From contig OX579634.1 of the NCBI GenBank assembly GCA_951230915.1, forward strand, positions 49,675,570 through 49,739,569: a stretch of 64,000 nt of DNA, in the 5' to 3' direction. The translations under genes and the position numbers were made by a program. Of the stretch, positions 1 through 32,993 are shown in pieces; position 1 is the first letter of the stretch, and each line of letters begins with the position of its first letter. The stretch is from Antitrichia curtipendula. Its lineage: Eukaryota; Streptophyta; Bryopsida; Hypnales; Leucodontaceae. Below the pieces are notes generated by a model. The model saw nothing but the letters and a program-made list of their open reading frames with translations, searched no databases and was not told the DNA's origin.

Positions 1-1110
1 TCTTCAACTCTAAAGGTAAACCCACTTGATTACATCGTATAGTGCCTATGGCATAGATGTGGATAGAAGCCAGTTCCATGAATAAGCTGATGCTAGAAAA
101 AAAAGTTATCATACACAAGAAAATGCCCCTTGCCTCCAAGGCCATGTACTAGGTCCATGACCACGTTGTGGGCTAATTGGGGTTGTCCACGGACAACCAC
201 TGGTACATCTTGGACTCCCACATTAGGAATTGCTCCACCATAAATGTCAAAAGTATAAACATACTTTGATTTCGAATCCACTAGGCACCACACTTTGATG
301 CCCCATTTTTGTGTTTTTTTGGGCATATATTGTCTAGCGGGACAATATGAATCCTTACACCTAATCATCATCTCATCAATCATGAGGTACATCCCTAGTG
401 TCCAATTGCCTTTGAAGCTCTTTCTTATCATTCACTAGCCAACGAACTTGTCCCATTTTGTCATAGCCCGGTATTCTCTCTCTCACGCATAATTGGCCGG
501 ATTGGTAATATGAAGACATCTTGTGATTGCTTGATATCTAGCACAAGTAAAAACTTGGAAAATTCAAGGACAATGGAAGAAAGTACCTTTTTTTGTCTAG
601 TAGGTCTTCATGTTTGGTTGTCTCTTCAATCCCATGAATATGTACACCGCCAAGAATGCCTTCAAAGCTGCTACGATTAATGGCGTCCACATTGGTCCTC
701 CGGGTAAATTTTGGTCTTCAACCGGTGTTGTTGCATACCGGTTAGTTTCCATCACAATCTTCCTCAAAAGAGTGAACGACCAAAATAAAGAGAACAAGGC
801 CATGAATGATGGCATTCTACAAAAATGTCTATTGGGGCAAGGCATGCCAACAAATGAAAGGCAATCATGTGAATATGTAGAATTATTTTGGGCCCATGTT
901 GATTCTCTAAAAAGATGTTTTACACCATTGGGATTAGCGGGATCCTCATCATCACCACTTTCACTTTCCTCATGGAGGAGTTCGTTTTGCCCATCTAAAT
1001 CCTCACTTTCACTCCCTAGAATGTTTACCTCAGAATTGTAATCTTCATTGAAAAAACCAAAATCTTCAAATGACCACTCTAAGTTTTCGAATTCATCCTA
1101 GAGCACCCTG
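1..1110 (-). mobile_element. Decayed piggyBac-type transposase (DDE_Tnp_1_7 family), runs off the left edge
   Basis: Minus-strand translation gives piggyBac transposase pieces in order. An acidic N-terminal stretch lies at about 1050-850. The ETNRYA and AFLAVYIFMGL motifs lie in 845-597. The core, 431-93, contains IDEMM, QYMPKK, KWGIKVW and YDNFF. A further piece with SISLFMELA and GTIRCNQVGLP lies in 92-1. These are conserved landmarks of piggyBac transposases, which cut and paste DNA at TTAA sites; the Asp residues in IDEMM and YDNFF fit catalytic positions. The copy is broken: an in-frame stop follows MKTY near 600, the reading frame shifts between 597 and 431, and it shifts again near 93. 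The 3' part is outside the window. Family assignment is firm; activity is very unlikely. Confidence 0.85.
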
Positions 1111-9997: not shown

Positions 9998-10036
9998 CAT
10001 ATTTGTAGTCTTTGGAATGTAAGTGGTGTTCTTTAA

Positions 10037-10680
10037 CCCCTAATGCCCAAGGCTTGTTTTGAGCATCTTGAAATTTGCTCTAAGTTGAACAAAATGCCAA
10101 CATTTTGATAAGTTGTATCAATTTTTTTTGAATTGTAACCGTACAAATCCAAACTAGACATGTTAGAGATCTCATAGGAAAAGAAAATACAACAATATCA
10201 CATATGGAGTGAAAGATTATAATGTTTGACCACAAGGGTGTTAAAACTGCAAAAGTGATGTGAAGTCTTTCAATCTTCTTTTCACAAGTCAAATCTAAAA
10301 AGTTGGTGGCCAAAAAAATATGAGGTTAAAGGACCTAACATGTATAATCCCATTCAATTTATGGCTTCTTAAAATCTCTTTTACAATTTTTTTGAATGAA
10401 TTTTGAATGTGATTTTTTCTCCAAGATATAGTGTATTTGAGGCTCATTTCCAAGAGCTCTCAACACTACGAGAAGTCAAGTTGCAATGGGTACCCTTGCA
10501 CAAAATCTTGAATAGAAAAATCACTATAATTTATTTTTAAAATCGAATTTTTGATGCTAAAATTAGACTTCAAGAAGAGCTTTCAAAAATATAAAATACT
10601 AAACATAGAAACTTGGTTAGGTTTTATTTAACTTCAAAGTTTTGCAAACACCAGATTTGGGTGCCTTAGGCATTTAGGGG
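10037..10680 (+). mobile_element. TTAA-type MITE, family A copy 1
   Basis: A 644-bp element is bounded by intact TTAA at 10033-10036 and 10681-10684. The ends are inverted repeats: left CCCCTAATGCCCAAGGC, right (reverse complement) CCCCTAAATGCCTAAGGC. The interior aligns end to end with 28128-28802. TTAA duplication plus CCC-type ends is the piggyBac signature. Confidence 0.85.
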
Positions 10681-16869: not shown

Positions 16870-19555
16870 TCAGCGTGAGGATTGGGAAGAGGTCAAACTT
16901 TCAACACGCTTCTGTAAGTTCAGAAACTCTCGCTTTAACTGCAATACTTCTGAAGAAATATCCGCCGTTTTCTGATTTGCCCTCAGCTTCTTCACCTCCG
17001 CTTCCAATAAATTCACTTTGTTCTCTTGTTCCTTCACTGTGACATTCAAATTTCCCACATTAACGTCTGCCGATCTTTGGGCTAGTTGCACGTCCTGCAT
17101 TATCACCAGAGTACACTTAGAACAAACACCAATTAAAAAGATATACTATGCACAGGGAAAACAGAGGTAATAAGCACACTAAAGATCTAGAAGATATTAT
17201 AAAAAGGGTGACCAAGGTTTGGTACGAAGAATATCACTTCCAGTTGTGGCTTGCGAGGACAGCAATGTCAATTGCACGCCTCGCACAGCCTGAAAACCCT
17301 CTATCCATTCCTAGTGATAAACTGAATTTAATGAAGGACAATTTACCTTTTCCACAAGGAGAATACGCTGTGTATGTTCTCCAAGTGTGGCTTCATGGTT
17401 CTGCACATGTTGCAAAGTCTCCAGCAAGTGCTCTCCCATGTACTCTGTACAGTGACTTTCCAATAAACCCTGCCACCAGATCCAGATATAAGACTCGTGA
17501 ATATGCCAAGTTGCACTAGAATAGGATTTTCTAGTTCAATTGCATACGATACTCTCAGACTAGGAATCGACATTTTAAGCTCTATAGCAACAACTAAAGG
17601 ATTGGGCAAATTATGTAACCAGGTATAAGACTTCCTCATGATTTATTCTGGACAACGTTGGTGGAGAGTCTGAACCTGGGCCATAACATGAAGGCACCCA
17701 ACCGCATGATAAGGACATTTCATTTTCTTCATAGGACACACAGTTGCACAATGGTTCGCCATATCTTTGCGCTGCACAGATGACTCGCATTCGAGGTAAC
17801 ATGGAAAGAGCTTGTAACCGCATGAAGCATCATGGTCTTCCGCATGTATTGCGGAGTAAACAGCATCACATCCTTCGTTGGAACACGATACTGGCCTAAA
17901 AACACAGCTGTTTTGGTGCTTTGCAAGCTCTATCTCAGACTCAAATTTCATCTCACAATGGCATGTCTTCCTTTGATCTATCCTTTTGAACAACGCTTTG
18001 CCAAGCACCTGATAAATTCCAAAGATTAGGCAACATGAACATGATTTAGGAACGCATCCTTGACTGCTTTTAATTGTGTGCAGAATACATAGGACAACCG
18101 TCATTATCTACCGTCGCACGAGCTGAAGGAATTGTCACATAGAAACAACTGCCAAATACTGCTATCATTAGTGCGATGAACATGGTGCACACCTCGCGAC
18201 GCCCAGCCAGCCACACGCCTGTTTGATCCAGCTCACGAACAAAATCACTGACTTTATCATCCTTGGGCGAAACCATACCCGAAACACGAGAAAACATATT
18301 TCTCTTTGATTTGACGAAGTTGTCAAGCATATCCTTCACAATCTGTGTTGGATAGGAAACCTGATCAAGAAACAGATGCTCTCAGAATGGACAACGTAGA
18401 GCCAATCAAAAAAATAATTACCACAAAAGCTTGCATCTAGATCCATGACACCGTTTGAGTCTGAACAACAAGGATGGTACGCACGCATCCTAGCAAACGG
18501 TTATTCCAAAGTGCCCTTCTATTCGACAGAGCTATCGCACCTAGGCAGCGGATAGCTGTATATTTCACACGCAAATGATCCAATTTGTATCAAACAAAGA
18601 CCATCATACAGCTCTAAGGATATGATCAACATAGTCCATAACAGGGTGGTGTCTCGCAGTATTCAGTGACAAGCACAGCACTGGCAGTGTAATGACGTAC
18701 CAGGTCCAGCTTGACGCCCTGCCCGCTTGAGATACCGTTGGCATAAGCCTCGCTTTGCAAGTTCAAGTAGTCGAGCATTTCTCTTTTAACATCTGGTGCT
18801 ACAGTCGCTCGCTGGCTAAAGGTTCCTGATGTTTTCTCCACACAGGCGGCAGCTAGAGCGACCAGCAAAGACTGCGAGAGGCGATTCACCTCCTCTACAT
18901 CATAGAAGCTACATTCCAGCAGCTGTGGTGACGATGGCCCTTGCTTTGGTTCACCTGTAAAAGTCCATCTCAGTTCAGAATACAATTAAAACTTCATAAC
19001 AACTGGATATTACAGTAACGACCGCTAATTAAAGTGAACCTTGGGAACTCAGTAATTCAAACCCTTCAATCGGTAACCAGAAGCCATGTACTTTGAACAC
19101 ACACACTCTACCCACATATGTGACATTTTGTGACTCTATTATTTCAATGTCTCTTCGGTATACTTCACATGAAGCTTGCCAACCGCCTAGAATTACCCAA
19201 TCTGTTTGTCAAATAAGTTCGAAACGCACGAATGATATTCTAAACAATAGAGTACATAATTGCTATCCAATTCCACACAATCGGGTGCACAAATGAAAGG
19301 TTAGTTTATCTACTAAGGAGACAGGAGTCTAATAAACGTCTTTCTTTACTTTCTGATGCTCATAGCGAATGCTCATAACGAACAGTCAGTTACTCACAAA
19401 AAGGACGATGAAGTAAGGAAAGAGATGGCGCATTACAAATTTGACAATGAATAAGAATTTTTTCAAAAACAACTCCTAACCCTGAATTTTCACTTATCAA
19501 TAATAAGACAAGTCGACTGAAAGAGAATACCTGAATCACTTATATTGGTCGCCAT
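16870..19555 (-). CDS. TRAF-type zinc-finger protein (resembles Arabidopsis At1g09920)
   Basis: I assembled six exons (minus): 19555-19531, 18954-18701, 18360-18193, 18008-17676, 17469-17347 and 17094-16870. All junctions are GT-AG and the phases close, giving 375 residues from ATG at 19555. Residues 1-150 form a conserved N-terminal region with the pieces KREMLDYL and KSKRNMFSRVSG. Residues about 165-255 are a Cys/His-rich TRAF-type zinc-finger block (CHCEMKF, CSNEGCDAV, HCATVCPMKKMKCPYHAVGC). The last exon (302-375) is predicted coiled coil with heptad Leu. TRAF-type fingers usually mediate protein-protein contacts; the plant members are poorly characterised. The gene stands alone. The resemblance to At1g09920 rests on memory of that family, and the last exon is the least constrained. 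Confidence 0.9.
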
Positions 19556-23672: not shown

Positions 23673-24421
23673 TTAATATGCGCAGAGTTTGCTTTGTGCA
23701 TATGTTTAGATTAAACATGTTTCGAAAGTTCTAGACTTCTAGCGCAGATGATTCCTTCGGAAGAGGGCATTGATTGATAGAACGGCGCTAGCATTGAATG
23801 TACCGCGGCATGCAGCTCGCAATTTTTCTGGCACAGTTTGCTATTTTGCATGCATTGTCTTCTTCATCTGCGCTAATTTCTTGAAAGAGAGGGAACCGAT
23901 TACTGTTGTATTGCGGGCCGCTTTGCTGAATCTCTCAGCAATACTATAGTCAATTTCATGTTACGAGATGACTGAAACCTCGAATACCGGCGTATCACAA
24001 ATTTTTCGTGATTGATTAGAACTTCACGGCGCAAGGTAGCCTCTCGTTTGTCGCCTATTGTTTTGTTTTGAGGAGCCTCGCTATGTAATTCGAGAGACTT
24101 AACGCATAGGTGTTGCTGAGTGCTTGATAACAGTAGTTAAGTTAGTACCTGCGAGTTTTTTTTAGCGTGCCTACTGTGAGTTTGTTCTGCATGCGTTTGA
24201 AATCTTCAATTGGAGCATTTTTACAGTATCACGAAGCTATTCACAGAATTCTATGGAAATTTGAAATTTAGAGAGGAGGATTAGTTGTTGAAGGCGCTAA
24301 TGTTTGTTTAGATCACGAGGCCTGCGACTTCTTTTCAGTGTGTGAGTTCCCCGTATACGCCGTTGAATTTTTGGAGCGTTGTTAGTCCTCCTGAGTTTTT
24401 AGGGACTGCCTACTCACAATT

Positions 24422-24429
24422 CGGCGAAA
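24422..24429 (-). promoter_or_regulatory. Possible E2F-type site
   Basis: The minus strand reads TTTCGCCG, which fits the plant E2F consensus WTTSSCSS. It lies about 86 bp upstream of the ATG at 24515. It is only 8 bp, so chance occurrence is quite possible. Confidence 0.25.
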
Positions 24430-24514
24430 TCTAGAAACGAGGACGACTAATTGCAGGCACTAAATTATTTTGTGTGATTTCTTTCTTTATGTGAAGAAAT
24501 CAAGAAAGGTGGAG

Positions 24515-25708
24515 ATGATGTTGGAGCCGATGGTCGAAGAGAGCGAATGGATGCAGTGTACAGCATGCAACCGATGGCGCCTTCTGCCTCCTGGAATGAG
24601 CGCTGACGACTTACCAGAACAATGGTTCAGAAACCTCTACTGTGCAACCATTCTTCGAGAGTCGACTATTCCCTAATTTATTGTGGTGTTGGACGTTGGC
24701 GTGAGAATCATGCTTGTTGCCCGGGAAGACTAGATAAGATTCTGAGTTTCGTTGCATGCACTCCGCAAGGGCCTATATTTGCCTGACAGAGTGAAGTCTT
24801 GCTATAGGTTTTGTCACGCGGAGCCTTTTAACAGAAACTGCGACGTTGCTGAAGTCGCTGAAACTCTTCCCGATTCTGTCATTGCCGTTCCTAATAAGTC
24901 TTCGGCAGCATACACAGGTAATTCAGCACAAATCTAATCTTCCTTGCCACTTTTATTGAGTACTGTATCACCTTCGGTACACCAACTGGAACTGCACTCT
25001 TTGCTTTCCCTATTGTCTGTACATAGGGTGAGACTTAACCCCTGTTCATGGTCCCACTTCAAAGCCCGCTGGACAGTGAGTATGGACGGGATTCTAATCG
25101 GTATCCGTGCACCAATTCTTGGTACATGAACTGATCGCCTTATATTTGTGACTGATTTAAAAGTGATTACTTCATTTTTTTCCTGAGGTTGTCGAATTTT
25201 TTTTACAGATTATGAAATAGGAGAAGAATTAATTTGCACTTCAGAGTCGAGCTTCGAAAAATCAGTTCCCAAAAGAAAAAGAACCGCGGTTATCAGAAAC
25301 CGGCGTGAATTCAGAGTCTCTTTCATGCAGATCGCACACCAAGGCCCAGTGGACAATGGTAGGACATTTTCCCCAAAGAAAACTAAGTTCCTTCAAAGGA
25401 GCATTGAGAGCTTCTTCCCAAAGAAAACCGTGTTGATTCGAAAGAGTATCAAGGATAAATTTCTAAAGAAAAGCAAGCTCTTTCAAATGAGTATGAAGGA
25501 TTACTTTCCGCAGAATGCCAAGTTCGTTCAAAAGAGAATCAAGGATTTCTTCCCAAGAATTAAGTACTTCGAAGTCATGGAGAATCTGAGACAAAGTAGA
25601 GTGAACTGCGTCAACAGAGATGCCACGGTGGGAAATTCCAGGACAGTAATTATGAATATCACAGCAGGATTTCGTAGACCTCGTGGAAGACCAAGGAAGC
25701 TCAGATGA
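24515..25708 (+). CDS. CW zinc-finger protein with a four-unit PIP-box array and AT-hook
   Basis: Three exons, 24515-24624, 24808-24917 and 25209-25708, give 239 residues. The first junction rebuilds the W-F-C of a CW domain: W12, C15, C18, W21, W37, C39 and C48 match the zinc ligands and aromatic residues of CW fingers, which usually read histone H3 Lys4 methylation. A basic PKRKRT (94-99) looks like a nuclear signal. Residues 134-193 hold four exact 15-residue repeats carrying QRSIESFF (136), RKSIKDKF (151, degenerate), QMSMKDYF (166) and QKRIKDFF (181). Three fit the PCNA-binding consensus QxxhxxFF (h, small hydrophobic). An AT-hook, RPRGRPRKL, is at 230-238. I know no described protein with this combination. 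The inferred role is a chromatin or replication adaptor. The first donor (TG|gttcag) is weak; upstream in-frame stops support the ATG chosen. Confidence 0.82.
25388..25567 (+). repeat. Four 45-bp in-frame repeats encoding PIP-like motifs
   Basis: Four consecutive 45-nt units encode residues 134-193 of the CW protein. Spacing is exact, while third positions and non-motif residues have diverged. The Q/R-xx-I/M-xx-[FYK]-F core is the best conserved part. Confidence 0.85.
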
Positions 25709-25866
25709 GTTTCAGAGCAGGGAGGAGATTTGAGATTCATGGGATTCAAGGTAATTTTGATTTGGAATAGTGATAACGTTATGGAAATCATGCTCTCGCT
25801 GTGGCTGCGGATGTGTTGAATATTGGAAGTTCTAAACGAACAATGTGAGCATTTTCTCTCATTATT

Positions 25867-26202
25867 CTATATGAGAATAGTGTAGGTAGTTGTGGGATTC
25901 TTCCAATTCTGTCCATAGCCTCGATGACAATACCAAGGAGCACTAACATCGACCTTGGTACCAGGGACATTGATGAGGGATGACCTTTTATTCTGTGGAG
26001 TTTGGAGCACAAGTCTAATAGTATTTGACATGTGGACTGAGTCAAACGATTCCATTGCATAAAACACAGTCTCAGAGGCGTCCCCCATCAGAGTTGAAGG
26101 AGGTATATGCACAGGATTCACTGTTGTAAAGAAGACGACAACACTTTGGACCGGAGCAGCGCTTGATTGCACAAATTTATGGTCATAGGTGTACATATTC
26201 AT
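25867..26202 (-). other. Unrecognised open frame between convergent genes
   Basis: A 111-codon ATG-initiated minus frame (ATG at 26202) lies between the 3' end of the CW gene and the stop of the DJ-1-like gene (26291). It resembles no family I know and lacks obvious splice partners. It may be chance, or a 3' untranslated region of either neighbour. Confidence 0.15.
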
Positions 26203-26290
26203 GTTGAGCCAGGGAAGCAGCTCCTCCTACATTTCAATATGGTTAAGTGATTGCCCTCGAGTTGCTCAGTACATGATACAATTGATGGAG

Positions 26291-27362
26291 CTAGAGTCGA
26301 ACATCGGGCGATGGTGCGGCAGAGGCGGCGTCCAGCTGCTTCTTCACATCCGGCATCATCTTCTCTACCCACGCGCGAGCAATGGCTACAACGTCGGGGC
26401 TGGCTTTGGCAATAGATCCGCAGTTGAAGGGAGGCTGGGGATCGTACTCCATCATCAACTGCACCACCTTCGCAGTGGTTTCATCGGAGAGTAGGGCAGC
26501 TAGTTTCAAACCCATGTCAATTCCTGCCGACACTCCTGCCGCTGTGATAATCTTACCCTGCAATCCATCAATGTATTAGCATTTTCATCGATCTATCAAT
26601 ATAAGATTATTTGCCCCAGTGACAGCATAAGATTAACATGCTTTGCATTCTATTGTGGCATGGACCAAATTCGTCAGCGTACCGATTGTACAACTCGAGA
26701 GCTGACGGGGATGGCACCGAAGTTGGACAGCAAGTTTAGGATCATCCAGTGCGTGGTTGCTTCTTTTCCTTGCAGAATACCTGCGGCGCCCAAGAGCATG
26801 GATCCCGAACACACCGAGGTTGTGTACAAGCTTGTCTCATGCGCCTTCAAGCATCCAAACAAGGTACACCGATCAGTCGCGGATCTTTTAGGCAATAAAT
26901 TCAGGAATATATAGGAAGCATATATGGAATGGCGTCAGGGAACAGCAGCAAGATGAAGCTTGGCGCATGAAAAGCTCGTACCTTGCGAATCCAATCGAGG
27001 ATGGTCTTGTCAGCCATAAGAGCGTTGGTGCCATCACCTCCGGGCATGACAATAATGTCGGGGCTGGGCACTTCGTCGAAAGTGGCGGTGGCCTGGATAG
27101 AGAGCATGCCCCCGTCTGCGGTGAAAAGGCCCTTTCTATGGCTTACAAACACCACCTTCACATTCGGAAGGGCGTGCAGTGGCTCGTATGGCCCTACGAA
27201 GTCGAGTGCTGTCACATTGTCGAAAATAGGGATGGCCACCTGCAAAATGCGTGGGGAGCCCGCTGCCTCCATTTTGTCGGTGAAGTAAGCACTTCTGTTT
27301 GGGGATCGAGTACCTGCTGAGAGCGAATGTACTAGATCAGAAACACAAGAACACGAATCCAT
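26291..27362 (-). CDS. DJ-1/PfpI family protein, isocyanide-hydratase-like
   Basis: Three exons (minus), 27362-26982, 26844-26683 and 26557-26291, join in phase 0 and give 269 residues. The fold signatures are LDFVGPYE (53-60), MPGGDG (106-111) and the nucleophile-elbow Cys in SVCSGS (Cys139). The order GAAGILQGKEATTHW, RVVQSGKIITAAG, VSAGID and YDPQPPF follows the bacterial branch that includes isonitrile (cyclohexyl-isocyanide) hydratase, more than the DJ-1/YajL branch. That enzyme hydrates isonitriles to N-formamides using the Cys; the substrate here is not known. The first 30 residues are extra and translation could start at Met31 (27272). Introns show it is a resident nuclear gene. The family call is firm, the substrate class tentative. 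Confidence 0.9.
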
Positions 27363-28120
27363 CGTGAAAGAAAATAAGAAATTCTAATGTCAGAAAAAAC
27401 ACAATAGCACGACATATTTTCATTTACAGGCAATCGGATGCAGGATTGCCAAGCAGAAGGTAAACGCTGCAATGGGGTTGCAAAGCAAGTGACTGTCTAA
27501 TGCCGGGCAGGTATTGTATCATTCAAACATTAACTAAAGGACACATGTAAGTAGAATGTAATAAATCACCGACAAGGACCTAGCAGCATAAATTTATCCA
27601 CAATCAGCTCGTGCGCAAACGTCACAGACTCAAAGACAGGAGGGAGCCATGGCTGGCTCAGAATGTGCACCTTGTGCGTAGAGGAATGTGCAAGTGCAAA
27701 TGAGAATTCACTGATGAATTCCTTGTCACAATCGTTTAAATATTGGCAAGGTGGGAGATTGGCTTGGGCAGCAAGCGTCCTCAAGAAACCAAATTTGAGT
27801 TGCTAGTACAACTCGACGTACAATGATCAAACTTGCGCTCCAAGGCAGAGTCAAAGACTAATGGATACAGTGCTCCTGTTCAGATATTCAGTGTAGATAG
27901 ACTGGGCAAAATTGCAATGAAGACGTGAAGATCAGATCCAATGCGCAGGAGTGGAATCGATGATCTCATTCTGCCTTTGCAATCGTCGATGAACAACAGG
28001 TACTCGTCCTGGGTGAGAGTAAAGGTTCATGACCCGGCAGTCTGCCCGGCAGTCTGCCCGGCAGTCTGCCCGGCAAAACAGCCTGGCAAAAATATTTCCA
28101 CCTTCTGACAATATCTAAGG
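27363..28120. other. 5' flank of the DJ-1-like gene with a 12-bp minisatellite
   Basis: Moderate GC content; no further gene recognised. Four near-identical copies of GCCCGGCAGTCT (last one degenerate) lie at about 28033-28080. Confidence 0.45.
28033..28080. repeat. 12-bp minisatellite
   Basis: The unit GCCCGGCAGTCT is repeated about four times, the first and last units being variants. Confidence 0.9.
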
Positions 28121-28127
28121 GAGGCAA

Positions 28128-28675
28128 CCCCAAAATGACCCTAGACTTTCCTGAGCTTCTAGGAATTTGCTCTAAATTGAACAAAAAGCCAACATTTTGA
28201 TAAGTTATATCAATTCTTTTTGAATTGTAACCATACAAAATCAAATTAGACATGTTAGAGATCACATTAGAAAAGAAAACACAACAATATCTCTTATGGA
28301 TTGAAAGATTATAATGTTTGAACATGAGGGTGTTAAAATTGTAAAAGTGATTTGAAATCTTTCAATCCTCTTCTTACATGTCAAATCTAAAAATTTGGTC
28401 ACCAAAAAAATATGAGGTTAAAGGGCCTAACATGCATAACCCCAATCAATTTATGACTTCTCAAAATCTACTCTCCCTTTTTTTTAAATGAATTTCTAAT
28501 GTGATTTTTTTCTCAAAGATCTAGTGTATTTGAGGCTCATTCCCAAGAGCCCTCAACACTACAAAAAGTCAAAATTGCAATAGACACCCATACCCAAAAT
28601 CTTGATTAGAAAAATCATATCAATCATTTTCAAAATCAGATTTTTGAAGCTAAAACTAAATTTCTCAAATAACAT

Positions 28676-28712
<37 letters not shown>

Positions 28713-28802
28713 ATAAGCTACTAAAAATAGTAATTTGGTAAGATTTTTTTTAACTTCAAAAATTGGTCGAGAACACATTCTGTCCTCAGGGTCATTTTGG
28801 GG
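28128..28802 (+). mobile_element. TTAA-type MITE, family A copy 2
   Basis: A 675-bp element aligns end to end with 10037-10680. It starts CCCCAAAATGACCCT and ends with its inverted repeat AGGGTCATTTTGGGG before TTAA (28803-28806). The left flank is GCAA, so the target duplication is mutated or lost there. Copy-specific AT and GT microsatellites sit at about 28677-28712. Confidence 0.8.
28677..28712. repeat. (AT)n(GT)n microsatellite
   Basis: Compound dinucleotide tract inside family A copy 2; absent from copy 1. Confidence 0.9.
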
Positions 28803-28813
28803 TTAACCCTTAA

Positions 28814-29391
28814 TCCCTAAACGAAACGAACGCTCCAACGTCCATTTTCTAGACAATGAACAGATTCAACCTCTTGTTTCTGTCTCATTCTTGCTTAGAT
28901 GAAAGTCATCCTAATTTTTGGTGAGACTTTATCAAGTTGTTATCCTATCTATTGATTGGATTTAGTGTAATTAGAATACATATATTTGTTTAAATTACAA
29001 ATGTGGAAGTATGTCAAGTGGTCAACTTGCATTGACTCTAGTTCAAACCTAGATGTGCAAAAATGAGGTCAAAGATACAAAGGTCACAAAAAATTCAAAA
29101 AATCACCATATCAAGAGAACCTCATTTCAAATCCATTCCAACAAGTTTTACTCAAAAAATGATAATATTTTGCTTGTAAGTGAATTTAGAAGGAATTTTG
29201 AAATTTTTGTTTCAAAATTTATAGAAAAATCTTGGTGATAGCATTAGTGGATCTAACCGTATGGATAGAATTTAAAAATCAAAATCTACACCTTTCATTT
29301 GTATACCAATTCCAAAATATTCTTCCAAATCGTACTTTATAATGGTTTTTCCCAAATTGTCAATTCCGGAGATGAATCCAAATGTTTAGGG
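28814..29391 (+). mobile_element. TTAA-type MITE, family B copy
   Basis: A 578-bp element lies between TTAA (28810-28813) and TTAA (29392-29395), with ends TCCCTAAACG and ATGTTTAGGG. It is the reverse complement of 12829-13394 in its interior. Only seven bases separate its left TTAA-proximal boundary from the TTAA closing the family A copy. Confidence 0.7.
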
Positions 29392-29395
29392 TTAA

Positions 29396-29560
29396 ACGTC
29401 TATAAAGAATCTTCACTTGTAGGACAGAAGTGCAACTATTCATCCTCAGTATTAGGGGTGAAAAGGGGAGATCTTCTAGAGTACTTTGACTTTCAATGAG
29501 TATATTTGGCTTATTCAAAGTAGATGTTGTCACATGGTATTGAAATACATGATTTCCACA
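29396..29560 (-). repeat. Family E repeat, inverted unit
   Basis: Read on the minus strand it carries the family E words CCCCTTTTCAC, GATGAATAGTTGCACTTCTG and GATTCTTTA. The units at 30255-30600, 44080-44270 and 44600-44830 run in the opposite direction. Confidence 0.55.
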
Positions 29561-29655
29561 ACCACCAGTCCGTCCTTCAAGGATTAACCCTGGAAGGACT
29601 TTGGGGTCCCTCTGCAAATCATCATTTCTAAAACCATGGGAATAATTGGTATTAA

Positions 29656-30229
29656 CCCTAAAGCCCCGTTTGCTCCCTCGGAGGACAATTTGGGTCCGGG
29701 TAGGTTCCTATTGTCTCAATTTGAAGTGAATTTTTTTGAGATTTTTTGAGGTTGTGTAGCTTTGCAAGAGCTTTGTGGATATATAATTTTTGTTTCAATC
29801 GGATGCCGGGATGAAAAATTTATGGCACAATGAGCTAGAAATGGAGATTGGCGGGCAGCCCCCCCAAAACTACAAAAAGTCAGAATATATTTTTTTGAAT
29901 TTTTTGCCTAAAATATTATGTTTTTACCTATATGTGAAGCTTTGATTCATTCTTTTTGGACTAGAGATGAGAGAGTTATGGACAATCTTAGTTTTTTGGG
30001 CAATTTAAGCATCTTCTTGAAAAAAAACTTTTTGTTCAACTTTGAATGCTAATATCTTCCAATCCATATGGTGAAATTTGATGAAATTCTTACTACATGA
30101 TCTCAGACAAGTTAAGTACAAGATCCTATAGTTAAATTTTTATAAAAAAATTGGTTTCCTTAAGTGAATACAACAAAAGTGGTAGTTTTGAGTGGTTTTT
30201 GGCAAAAAACACCCTTGGGACTTTAGGGG
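29656..30229 (+). mobile_element. TTAA-type MITE, family C short copy
   Basis: A 574-bp element lies between TTAA (29652-29655) and TTAA (30230-30233), with ends CCCTAAAGCCCCG and (reverse complement) CCCCTAAAGTCCCAAGG. Its two flanks together resemble the uninterrupted family E unit near 30439-30482 (ATTGGCCTAAGAAACAG), which looks like the empty target site. Confidence 0.8.
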
Positions 30230-30254
30230 TTAAGAAAAACTAAATAATTCATTT

Positions 30255-30605
30255 GAAGTCAAAATATTGTTGAAGATCTCTACTTTCTAAAACTAATTCT
30301 AAAGATGAATAGTTGTATTTCTGTCCTACACAGGAGAATGCCTTGTCATTCATCAGACACTAAATGTCCACGGCATCCTTTCTTGGGTTAAAGGATAAAG
30401 GGATAACCTTGAAAATCATCCCTTCTCATTACCATGTGAATCATTGGCCTAAGAAACAGCAAAAGCACTCATTAGAAGTCAAAGAACTATGGAAGACCTT
30501 CCCTTTTCACAACAAAATTCCAAAGATGAGTAGTTGCACTTCTATCTTACTAGGTTGATTCTCTGTCATCCATCAATGCCAAATGTCTTCCTCGATGTTT
30601 AAGGG
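30255..30605 (+). repeat. Family E repeat units
   Basis: Two adjacent diverged units contain AGTTGCACTTCTATCTTAC-like, CATTACCATGTGAATCATTGG-like and GAAGACCTTCCCTTTTCAC-like words. The block ends TTTAAGGG-TTAA at 30606-30609. Confidence 0.6.
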
Positions 30606-30609
30606 TTAA

Positions 30610-32993
30610 GCATTTACATGCATCTACAGGCGAGGCAGGTTTCTTTAGTAGAGAATTTTTTCTATGTGCAAAAATAGAGTTTGAAAGTTTTGCATAATTT
30701 TTCAGATTTTTTTTCCTCAAAACATAATTACTATGAAATTTTTAGATGAAGATTTTGTTTCTCCCATATTGGTGATATAGACCTTCTTTTTGACCAAGGG
30801 CTATTTGCAATATTGAGAGTCTTGTTAGCCAATCATAATGTACCATAATTAATAACTGTCCATCTCTTCTATACAGAAAGAGAACAACCTACATTCCAAA
30901 ATGGGGCACCAGTCAAGAACATATTGTTTTTTATAGTCATATCTTCTTCATTGCAAGCCCATTCTTCAGAGAATGGGAATGGGGATGTTGTGGCTTCCCA
31001 TTGGCTTTACAATAGGAAAATATACTTCTACAAAGAAATCTTCTCCACATCCATTATTCTACTCTAGAGGTGAATAATGGTCATGAAGAAGATTTTGTTG
31101 AAGAAGAAGATTTTGCTTCGGAGCTCACGTTCATTTTACTTGCTGCGTTTCCTTTTTTTGTGTTGAAGCCTATTTTTTGCGCTTTATCAAGCGTTGCACA
31201 CAACTTGTACACCTAAATCTTATGTTTGGCACAGGATACGTATTTTGCACTCTTAAATCTTATTGTGCACTCTCCACTCTCGTTCTTTAGACAATAGAAA
31301 AGGAATGTTACACCTTCTTCACCCATAATTGCTCCACATTGGCTCCTAGTTTCTCTTACTAATTTCTCATTCTCTAAAGAAGTTTGCTTTGTGAATAAGG
31401 TGTGACTACCCCTAATCTAGAATTAGAGCTTAACCATTTACTTTAGAAGTTGGGATCTATTATTTAGTCGGATCATGAATCTCATTTTGCTCTTTGCATC
31501 CTAATGTACTAAAAATTGTACTTGTAAAAATGGAGTTGGGATTCAAAGGTTTGGATTTGGGTTGAAAAGTCACCATTTAATGAATTCAATGAACACCACC
31601 ATGCAACTTCTAAAAATGAAAAAATGGCTTATTTATTATTCTACAATTCAAAGGAATACTTTTGGATTGTCATAGAATCATGTAGGGAATTGAAAAGTCA
31701 CATTAGCATCCAAAAAAGCAAGAATTGTTCCCCCTAAGGCTTACAATGGGAAGCTACATGATTATACTTTGATTACCTATGATGTATCATTTTTTCCCCC
31801 AGTGAAGAGTAGACCAAAAATACATATAGAATACTTAATGATTATCCAGTTTATTTATTTATTTAATTTTTTAAATACTAATTTTTGTGGCCTATATAAG
31901 TTTTGTCTTTTAGCTAGTTTCTACTAGAATCTACTTCAAATGTCCAATTGTCCAATTTTTTATTTTTGTGTGCCTATTTCGATTAACTTTTGGTGCATTT
32001 TCTAATTCCACATCAATAAAAAATTAATGATATATTTGTCAAATTATTTTGGGATGTAGACAGTGGATTCTAAAAGCCACCAAAGAAGCATTTGAATATG
32101 ATCAATATAAAGAAAATTGCATCTAATTGTGACATATACTTCAAACCAACCCATATACATTCTTGCCTAAAATTTAATTTCTTATCTTCAAAGCCTAGGT
32201 GGATTTTGATAAACCTATTTTCCGAGTCTATTTTTACCTATTTTAAAAATTATTTTAAATTTTTATTCAAATAATGTCTAAAATATGCATGAAGAGAATT
32301 TGGAATGTCTTTGATTTCCAACAAGATCCAAACAAACTTAGATATTTTACAAATAGAAAACACAATCAAATTTTTGTTCACATGATAAGATAAAGTTATT
32401 TTTGTGTTATATATTTTAAGCAAATGGAAAATATTTTTATTTTATTTTAATATGTATGGAGTAATTCTTTAACCTCCTATCAATATATATTTAATTCTAT
32501 GTATATGAATTGTTTCAAAATTTTTAGCCAATTTGAAATTGATGTGATTTTTATTAACCCTTATGGTTTAACTTCAAAATTTACATAATTTCAAATCTTT
32601 ACAAATATATCTTGAACTTTTTATGACTTACAATAGAGTGATTTCATTTGTACAGTGACAAATATAAAAATAAAACTTTTATTCACTACTAAGTGTGGAA
32701 ATATGAAACTATTAAGTGGAGAATATTATAGATTGATTACATGTTCATAGGTATTGTTTTCTAAGCTATCTACATTATAATTATAATAACTTTAAGATTG
32801 AAGTATCAAGAAATGTTATTTCCTTAATGTAGTCATACAATGCTTATGAAGTTACCTATATGTCCAAAAATGTCTTTGCATAATGTCTTCAACTATATAT
32901 ACATCAAGCAACATGAAATTCATGTAAAGTAATAGAGCCTAAATTTAGTAAAAGGTTCTAAATCTTTTCAGTTTTTGTTTTGATTAACCGCTA
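30610..32993. other. Gene-free AT-rich stretch
   Basis: No gene, RNA or bounded mobile element recognised. Confidence 0.5.

What the first reader, a model, noticed from the sequence alone, without database searches (positions are those of the whole stretch)
24515..25708. CW histone reader fused to a tandem PIP-box array and AT-hook
The spliced 239-residue product joins a complete CW zinc finger (Cys 15, 18, 39, 48), four PIP-like motifs at exact 15-residue spacing (136, 151, 166, 181), a basic nuclear-signal-like segment and an AT-hook. Three of the motifs match QxxhxxFF (h, small hydrophobic); PCNA is a trimer with three PIP pockets, so one molecule could in principle occupy a whole ring. 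I know of no described protein with this arrangement. It suggests a factor linking H3K4 methylation state and AT-rich DNA to PCNA at replication or repair sites.
Basis: partly seen in the sequence, partly recalled or inferred. Interest (0 to 1): 0.88.

Follow-up and report, generated by a model that had tools for sequence, protein, structure and literature searches.

The report
Plant chromatin reader with repeated PCNA-like motifs
A small plant gene appears to join a histone-reading zinc finger to a repeated sequence that looks made to grip the DNA-replication clamp PCNA, a combination I did not find described, though nothing here shows that it binds.

Summary
Three exons splice in frame to 239 residues: a complete CW zinc finger (Pfam 45.2 bits), a basic nuclear-signal-like segment, four 15-residue units with PIP-like motifs at 136, 151, 166 and 181, and an AT-hook-like tail. 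Three motifs fit the published PIP rule; 0 of 200,000 shuffles gave three. The CW pocket residues resemble MORC3, so H3K4me2/3 reading is likely. The protein search found two relatives, both of exon 3 only. In them motifs 1 and 4 keep the rule, motif 2 fits nowhere, and motif 3 loses its Q in one. Adjacent motifs are 7 residues apart, probably too close to reach neighbouring pockets of one ring, so a two-site reading (1 and 4) fits better than whole-ring occupancy. The genome holds one broken copy that lost most of the CW exons; differences from it (11 replacement, 5 silent codons in exon 3) show no clear constraint. The fusion is seen in one locus, without transcripts. PCNA binding is inferred, not shown. 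Verdict: probably a real gene, a new combination of known parts, moderately interesting.

The parts
24515..24624 (+). Exon 1: start codon and first half of the CW zinc finger (W12, C15, C18, W21)
   Evidence: in-frame join; exon 1 alone matches zf-CW at 34.3 bits
24625..24807 (+). Intron 1, 183 bp, GT-AG, weak-looking donor ATG|GTTCAG
   Evidence: the splice rebuilds the CW motif
24808..24917 (+). Exon 2: second half of the CW zinc finger (W37 completed here, C39, C48, E55)
24918..25208 (+). Intron 2, 291 bp, GT-AG, donor CAG|GTAATT, acceptor TTTTACAG|AT
25209..25708 (+). Exon 3: basic segment, repeat array, AT-hook-like tail, stop codon
   Evidence: relatives P0001 and P0002
25268..25282 (+). 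PKRKR, nuclear-signal-like basic segment (residues 94-98)
   Evidence: KRKR kept in P0001, not covered by P0002
25373..25556 (+). Tandem array, 45-bp (15-residue) unit, about four copies
25394..25417 (+). Motif 1 QRSIESFF (136-143), canonical PIP; rule kept in 3 of 3 sequences (QRSIERFF in P0002)
25439..25462 (+). Motif 2 RKSIKDKF (151-158), degenerate; QKSIKDKF and RKSIKDSL in the relatives
25484..25507 (+). Motif 3 QMSMKDYF (166-173), fits the rule; QVSIKDYF and LMSMKDYF in the relatives
25529..25552 (+). Motif 4 QKRIKDFF (181-188), canonical PIP, identical in 3 of 3 sequences
25673..25699 (+). AT-hook-like RRPRGRPRK (229-237); RGRP in 2 of 3, RGRA in P0002
   Evidence: AT-hook consensus recalled, no Pfam AT-hook match returned

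Best explanation
A small, basic, probably disordered nuclear adaptor. Its N-terminal CW finger would read H3K4me2/3 (MORC3-like pocket). Its array would bind PCNA through motifs 1 and 4, at one or two pockets of the ring or by rebinding at one pocket, with motif 3 as a variable helper and motif 2 decayed. Its RGRP tail would hold AT-rich DNA. So it would bridge methylated promoter-type chromatin and the clamp during replication or repair, or compete with other PCNA clients there. Shown: open spliced frame, CW family, motif array, partial conservation in two relatives, a plant-type PCNA exon in the same genome. Inferred: transcription, nuclear location, disorder, every binding step and the place of action.
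For: CW family match. Pocket tryptophans W12 and W21 align with MORC3 W410/W419, and E55 with MORC3 E453 (alignment; residue roles, and the matching ASHH2 W865/W874, from passages of PMC9043364). MORC3 scores 41 bits, ASHH2 18. Three motifs fit QXXhXXaa as defined in PMC7225939 (passage). Array far above chance. Motif 4 identical, and motif 1 within the rule, in 3 of 3 sequences. A PCNA N-terminal exon in the genome, closest to Arabidopsis PCNA1/2 among single-copy solved chains; the rest of PCNA was not examined. Net charge of residues 131-190 is +14.
Against: Conservation of motifs 1+4 over the rest is only suggestive: 1 of 16 against 33 of 111 variable columns, Fisher p 0.067 (3 sequences); 0 of 16 against 18 of 126, p 0.22 (2 sequences). 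Against the broken C1 copy, exon 3 differs by 11 replacement and 5 silent codons and at 3.2% of sites, little below the 4-6% of nearby non-coding DNA: no clear sign of constraint. Searches of the PDB with the units found no PIP peptide and met PIP-like strings in unrelated folded proteins (low power, no positive control run). Repeats can keep a motif by descent. The CW half is seen in one locus only; P0001 and P0002 cover exon 3 alone. The AlphaFold model of exon 3 is uninformative (mean pLDDT 46.7). RGRP is broken in P0002.
Confidence: 0.48

Rival explanations
1. The repeat is not a PCNA ligand: it is a basic amphipathic short repeat that binds another partner (DNA, importin or another folded protein) and resembles PIP boxes because one such 15-mer was copied four times.
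For: Hydrophobic residues also recur just before each motif (FL, LI, LF, FV); PIP-like strings occur in unrelated folded PDB proteins; net charge +14.
Against: The Q, hydrophobic and two-aromatic spacing is kept in units 1 and 4 of all three sequences, and three matches are well above chance.
Confidence: 0.2
2. The array is a PCNA-dependent degron: binding to clamp-loaded PCNA leads to CRL4-Cdt2 ubiquitination, clearing the reader from chromatin in S phase.
For: Motif 4 has a basic residue (K192) at +4, one of the two degron features named in PMC7225939 (passage).
Against: No motif has the TD pair: ES, KD, KD, KD. Motifs 1, 2 and 3 have no basic residue at +4.
Confidence: 0.08
3. The gene is a fast-changing, lineage-limited gene that is losing function; the motifs are remnants.
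For: Only two relatives found in three searches of 5.8 billion proteins; motifs 2 and 3 drift; the duplicate on C1 lost 62 of 110 bases of exon 1 and all of exon 2 and carries 8- and 7-bp insertions in exon 3; 11 replacement against 5 silent codon differences between the copies.
Against: The window copy has an open frame, four zinc cysteines and GT-AG introns; units 1 and 4 vary least (3 and 1 of 15 columns) in relatives 87% and 81% identical. The search needs shared 5-residue words and similar length and the collection may hold few plant genes, so rarity there is weak evidence. The codon count mixes drift in the broken copy with change in the window copy.
Confidence: 0.14
4. Wrong gene model: the CW exons and exon 3 belong to different transcripts, so there is no fusion.
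For: No transcript data; donor 1 looks weak; unspliced exon 2 would stop at 24937.
Against: Splicing intron 1 raises the CW match from 34.3 to 45.2 bits. P0001 resembles exon 3 upstream of its first in-frame methionine (M113), and P0001 has no methionine before its second unit, so exon 3 most likely takes its start codon from an upstream exon. Donor 2 and acceptor 2 look strong and are in phase.
Confidence: 0.1

Closest known systems
ATXR5/ATXR6 (plant H3K27 monomethyltransferases)
   Same: Plant chromatin proteins that bind PCNA directly through a conserved PIP motif and act at replication (passages of PMC9409234).
   Different: They carry a SET domain (and a PHD finger, recalled), no CW domain and no array (recalled); here only zf-CW passed its Pfam cut-off.
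MORC3 / ASHH2 (SDG8) / ZCWPW1 CW readers
   Same: CW zinc finger with two pocket tryptophans reading H3K4 methylation; MORC3 is the closest solved relative.
   Different: Those proteins pair CW with ATPase, SET or PWWP domains (recalled, partly PDB names); none is described with a PIP array in the passages seen. A find in a 2026 review of plant H3K4 readers (PMC13361950) gave 0 occurrences of PCNA.
DNA polymerase eta and other proteins with several PIP boxes
   Same: Several PIP boxes in one chain; Pol eta has three (PMC4652755, start of abstract in a search listing).
   Different: Those boxes are scattered and not tandem copies of one 15-residue unit (recalled).
p15/PAF15 and p21
   Same: Small disordered PCNA ligands; p15 motif QKGIGEFF (PMC7225939 passage).
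   Different: Single PIP box, no CW reader (recalled).

Membership tests
CW zinc finger (PF07496) | Profile match above Pfam's cut-off | tested here: met
   45.2 bits against 27.5, residues 11-52
CW zinc finger (PF07496) | Four zinc cysteines and pocket tryptophans | tested here: met
   C15, C18, C39, C48; W12, W21, core W37
CW zinc finger (PF07496) | Binding of H3K4me peptides | not testable with these tools
   E55 aligns with MORC3 E453, which is only suggestive
PIP-box protein | QXXhXXaa motif (PMC7225939 passage) | tested here: met
   motifs 1, 3 and 4 fit; motif 2 does not
PIP-box protein | Motif conserved in relatives | tested here: inconclusive
   rule kept: motif 1 in 3 of 3, motif 2 in 0 of 3, motif 3 in 2 of 3, motif 4 in 3 of 3; motifs 1+4 against the rest p 0.067, or 0.22 without P0002
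PIP-box protein | Binding to PCNA | not testable with these tools
   no multi-chain prediction or assay at hand
PIP degron (CRL4-Cdt2) | TD before the aromatics and basic residue at +4 | tested here: not met
   no TD in any of four motifs; +4 basic in motif 4 only
AT-hook protein | RGRP core flanked by basic residues (recalled) | tested here: met
   RRPRGRPRK in the window and P0001, RGRA in P0002; but no Pfam AT-hook match was returned at E up to 10
ATXR5/6 | SET domain | tested here: not met
   only zf-CW passes its Pfam cut-off
MORC family | GHKL ATPase domain with the CW domain | tested here: not met
   absent from the 239-residue product

The most novel reading that the evidence does not exclude
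A plant-lineage H3K4me2/3 reader that holds PCNA through two or more tandemly evolved PIP boxes and AT-rich DNA through its tail, so that the clamp is kept at, or competed for at, active promoters during replication or repair: a direct reader-to-clamp bridge with no enzyme in the chain.
Probability: 0.35. Interest if true: 0.75.

Novelty: new variant of a known kind. Interest (0 to 1): 0.5.

Why it matters
How active histone marks are carried past the replication fork is an open question, and plants already have one PCNA-bound chromatin factor class (ATXR5/6). A non-enzymatic H3K4me reader wired to PCNA would be a simple, testable second link. The array also offers a natural case of a PIP-like motif being copied in tandem, with two copies kept and two drifting.

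Tried and rejected
Whole-ring occupancy by adjacent motifs: disfavoured by the 7-residue spacing and by motif 2. PIP degron: TD absent. Pfam DUF1639 (9.9 bits, below its cut-off of 22.2) and NCBIfam PtuA (12.7 against 500): noise. A second intact copy of exon 3 in the genome: none among the three matches listed; besides the window itself they are two overlapping readings of one broken place on C1. Whole-genome duplication as its origin: not supported; in 79 kb around the C1 copy, hits above 250 bits show the 90-92% collinear segment at window 24131-28114 and a 79% piece at 30388-31402 (an 89% piece at 31397-31555 is), while the other listed hits are 72-82% identical and not collinear. Other CW genes as array carriers: strict motifs in 0 of 7 other CW loci held, both strands, ORFs of 40 aa or more, about 1.5 kb each side; two further CW hits were not fetched, and says its counts are lower bounds. 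The earlier scan of those loci covered plus frames only. Reading residue 151 (R here, Q in the C1 copy and P0001, R in P0002) as a loss or gain: unresolved; CGA/CAA is a CpG-type transition. One search's region counts used a residue offset wrong by two; one search replaces them. PDB searches with 22-24-residue pieces had too little power to count either way. Rfam and tRNA scans found nothing. Viral contigs gave no relative of P0001. A text search for plant PCNA structures returned mostly off-topic papers and was not used. After the filing check I lowered the best explanation from 0.50 to 0.48 and raised the decaying-gene rival from 0.12 to 0.14, because the 11:5 codon count had been left out.

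Full report
The gene. The window lies in a 400-Mb genome of 303 contigs, at C2:49675570-49739569. A PCNA N-terminal exon of that genome is closest to Arabidopsis PCNA1 and PCNA2 among single-copy solved chains (210 and 207 bits, against 150 for human PCNA), so the organism is a plant; I would guess a moss, from recall only. Joining 24515-24624, 24808-24917 and 25209-25708 gives an open frame of 239 residues. The first junction is supported by the protein itself: exon 1 alone scores 34.3 bits against zf-CW, the spliced protein 45.2. The second junction has strong-looking, phase-matched sites. The relative P0001 keeps protein similarity upstream of M113, the first in-frame methionine of exon 3, and has itself no methionine before its second unit, so exon 3 most likely takes its start codon from an upstream exon. 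No transcript data were available.

The CW domain. The four zinc cysteines and three conserved tryptophans are present. The best solved relatives are MORC3 CW structures (41 bits), with Arabidopsis ASHH2 at 18 bits. In that alignment W12 and W21 fall on MORC3 W410 and W419, and E55 falls on E453, which completes the MORC3 pocket according to PMC9043364 (passages). The same passages say that MORC3 binds H3K4me2 and me3 while ASHH2 prefers me1. A MORC3-like preference is therefore my inference; the last aligned residue has only moderate alignment confidence.

The array. A 45-bp tandem repeat of 4.1 copies at 25373-25556 is found by Tandem Repeats Finder without any protein reading. By the rule in PMC7225939 (QXXhXXaa; passage), motifs 1, 3 and 4 fit and motif 2 does not. 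Three or more matches to Qxx[ILMV]xx[FY][FY] occur in 0 of 200,000 shuffles of the protein and 0 of 200,000 of its exon-3 part. Among 234 window ORFs of 60 aa or more (19,264 aa) three hold a motif: this one has three, the two others one each. In 304 ORFs (28,349 aa) of seven C1 stretches there is one motif. The copies are not independent: they arose by duplication, so the shuffles show that the array is not a chance string, not that selection keeps it.

Relatives. A search of 5.77 billion proteins with the spliced protein found P0001 (one JGI contig, 142 aa; 1 of 131 candidates), a search with P0001 found P0002 (127 aa), and a profile search found nothing more among 1,170 candidates. These searches need shared 5-residue words and similar length. 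P0001 and P0002 are 87% and 81% identical to exon 3 in alignment A1. Motif 4 is identical in 3 of 3; motif 1 is QRSIESFF, QRSIESFF, QRSIERFF; motif 2 is RKSIKDKF, QKSIKDKF, RKSIKDSL; motif 3 is QMSMKDYF, QVSIKDYF, LMSMKDYF (window, P0001, P0002). Unit 4 varies at 1 of 15 columns, unit 1 at 3, unit 2 at 4, unit 3 at 6. Motifs 1+4 against the rest: 1 of 16 and 33 of 111 variable columns, p 0.067; with P0001 alone 0 of 16 and 18 of 126, p 0.22. This leans towards constraint on motifs 1 and 4 without proving it. Neither relative covers the CW exons, so the CW-array fusion is seen in one locus only. The DNA of these contigs could not be fetched, as no metagenome scan was allowed.

The second copy. 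The own genome has one other copy of exon 3, on C1 minus strand. DNA identity is 92% over window 25122-28114, including the DJ-1/PfpI neighbour, and 90% over 24131-24562. Between these two pieces the C1 copy lacks window 24563-25121: 62 of 110 bases of exon 1, intron 1, all of exon 2 and 204 of 291 bases of intron 2. In exon 3 it has 16 substitutions in 500 aligned bases (5 silent, 11 replacement codons) and insertions of 8 and 7 bp; nearby non-coding stretches differ by 4-6%. It is a broken duplicate, and the comparison gives no clear sign of purifying selection on the window copy, though it is too small to exclude it. In the 79 kb compared, no hit above 250 bits outside the segment exceeds 82% identity.

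Geometry. Adjacent motifs leave 7 residues between the last aromatic and the next Q; motifs 1 and 3 leave 22, and 1 and 4 leave 37. Eight steps of at most 3.8 A reach about 30 A. The PCNA pore is about 35 A across (PMC7225939 passage) and the pockets lie outside it, so neighbouring pockets are more than 30 A apart (about 50 A or more from recall). Adjacent motifs are thus unlikely to fill neighbouring pockets of one ring; motifs 1 and 4, or 1 and 3, could. This argument is inference.

Mechanism. The best-supported reading is a disordered adaptor that reads H3K4me2/3 by CW, binds PCNA by motifs 1 and 4 and holds AT-rich DNA by its tail. It would work like ATXR5/6 in tying a chromatin function to the clamp (PMC9409234 passages), without being a member of that family: no SET domain was found. 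Binding to another partner, a PCNA-dependent degron, a decaying gene and a wrong gene model are the rivals; the degron fails its TD test. The AlphaFold model of exon 3, from three sequences, has mean pLDDT 46.7: it fits disorder but is no evidence for it.

Novelty. Text searches for CW domain + PIP box + PCNA and CW-type zinc finger + PCNA-interacting returned no paper; tandem PIP + PCNA returned one, on PolD4 (listing); CW domain + H3K4 + plants + AT-hook returned one, on tomato histone modifiers (listing); a 2026 review of plant H3K4 readers has no occurrence of PCNA (find). The library holds only open-licence PubMed Central papers, so this is not proof of absence. The parts are known and the combination appears new: a new variant of a known kind.

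Noticed in passing
window about 26291-27383, minus strand (extent by eye): DJ-1/PfpI gene next to the CW gene (Pfam 32.3 bits on the 26904-27383 ORF); its C1 duplicate has a 19-bp deletion in the part that is coding here.
   Followed up: partly
window 28115-30387: About 2.3 kb present here and absent from the C1 duplicate; the part at 28127-28764 resembles the same C1 places as window 10033-10676, so probably a mobile element.
   Followed up: no
L020 and L021 (C6:33405279-33405614 plus and C6:33422360-33422695 minus): Two PCNA_N matches with the same score in opposite orientation about 17 kb apart: an inverted PCNA gene pair, or an assembly effect.
   Followed up: no
L004 and L005 (C9:5088475-5093525, minus strand): Two CW exons about 5 kb apart that resemble each other, probably a tandem pair of MBD-type CW genes (type recalled).
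   Followed up: no
L001 (C4:12229685-12229819, minus strand): A CW finger inside a 774-aa open frame with helicase-like sequence, by eye.
   Followed up: no
window 600-1097, minus strand: Fragment of a DDE_Tnp_1_7 transposase (Pfam 26.8 bits).
   Followed up: no
window 17646-18107, minus strand: TRAF-type zinc finger ORF (Pfam 37.5 bits).
   Followed up: no
residue 151, window 25439-25441: R here and in P0002, Q in P0001 and in the C1 copy; residue 167 splits the same way (M against V). Unexplained by a simple tree.
   Followed up: partly
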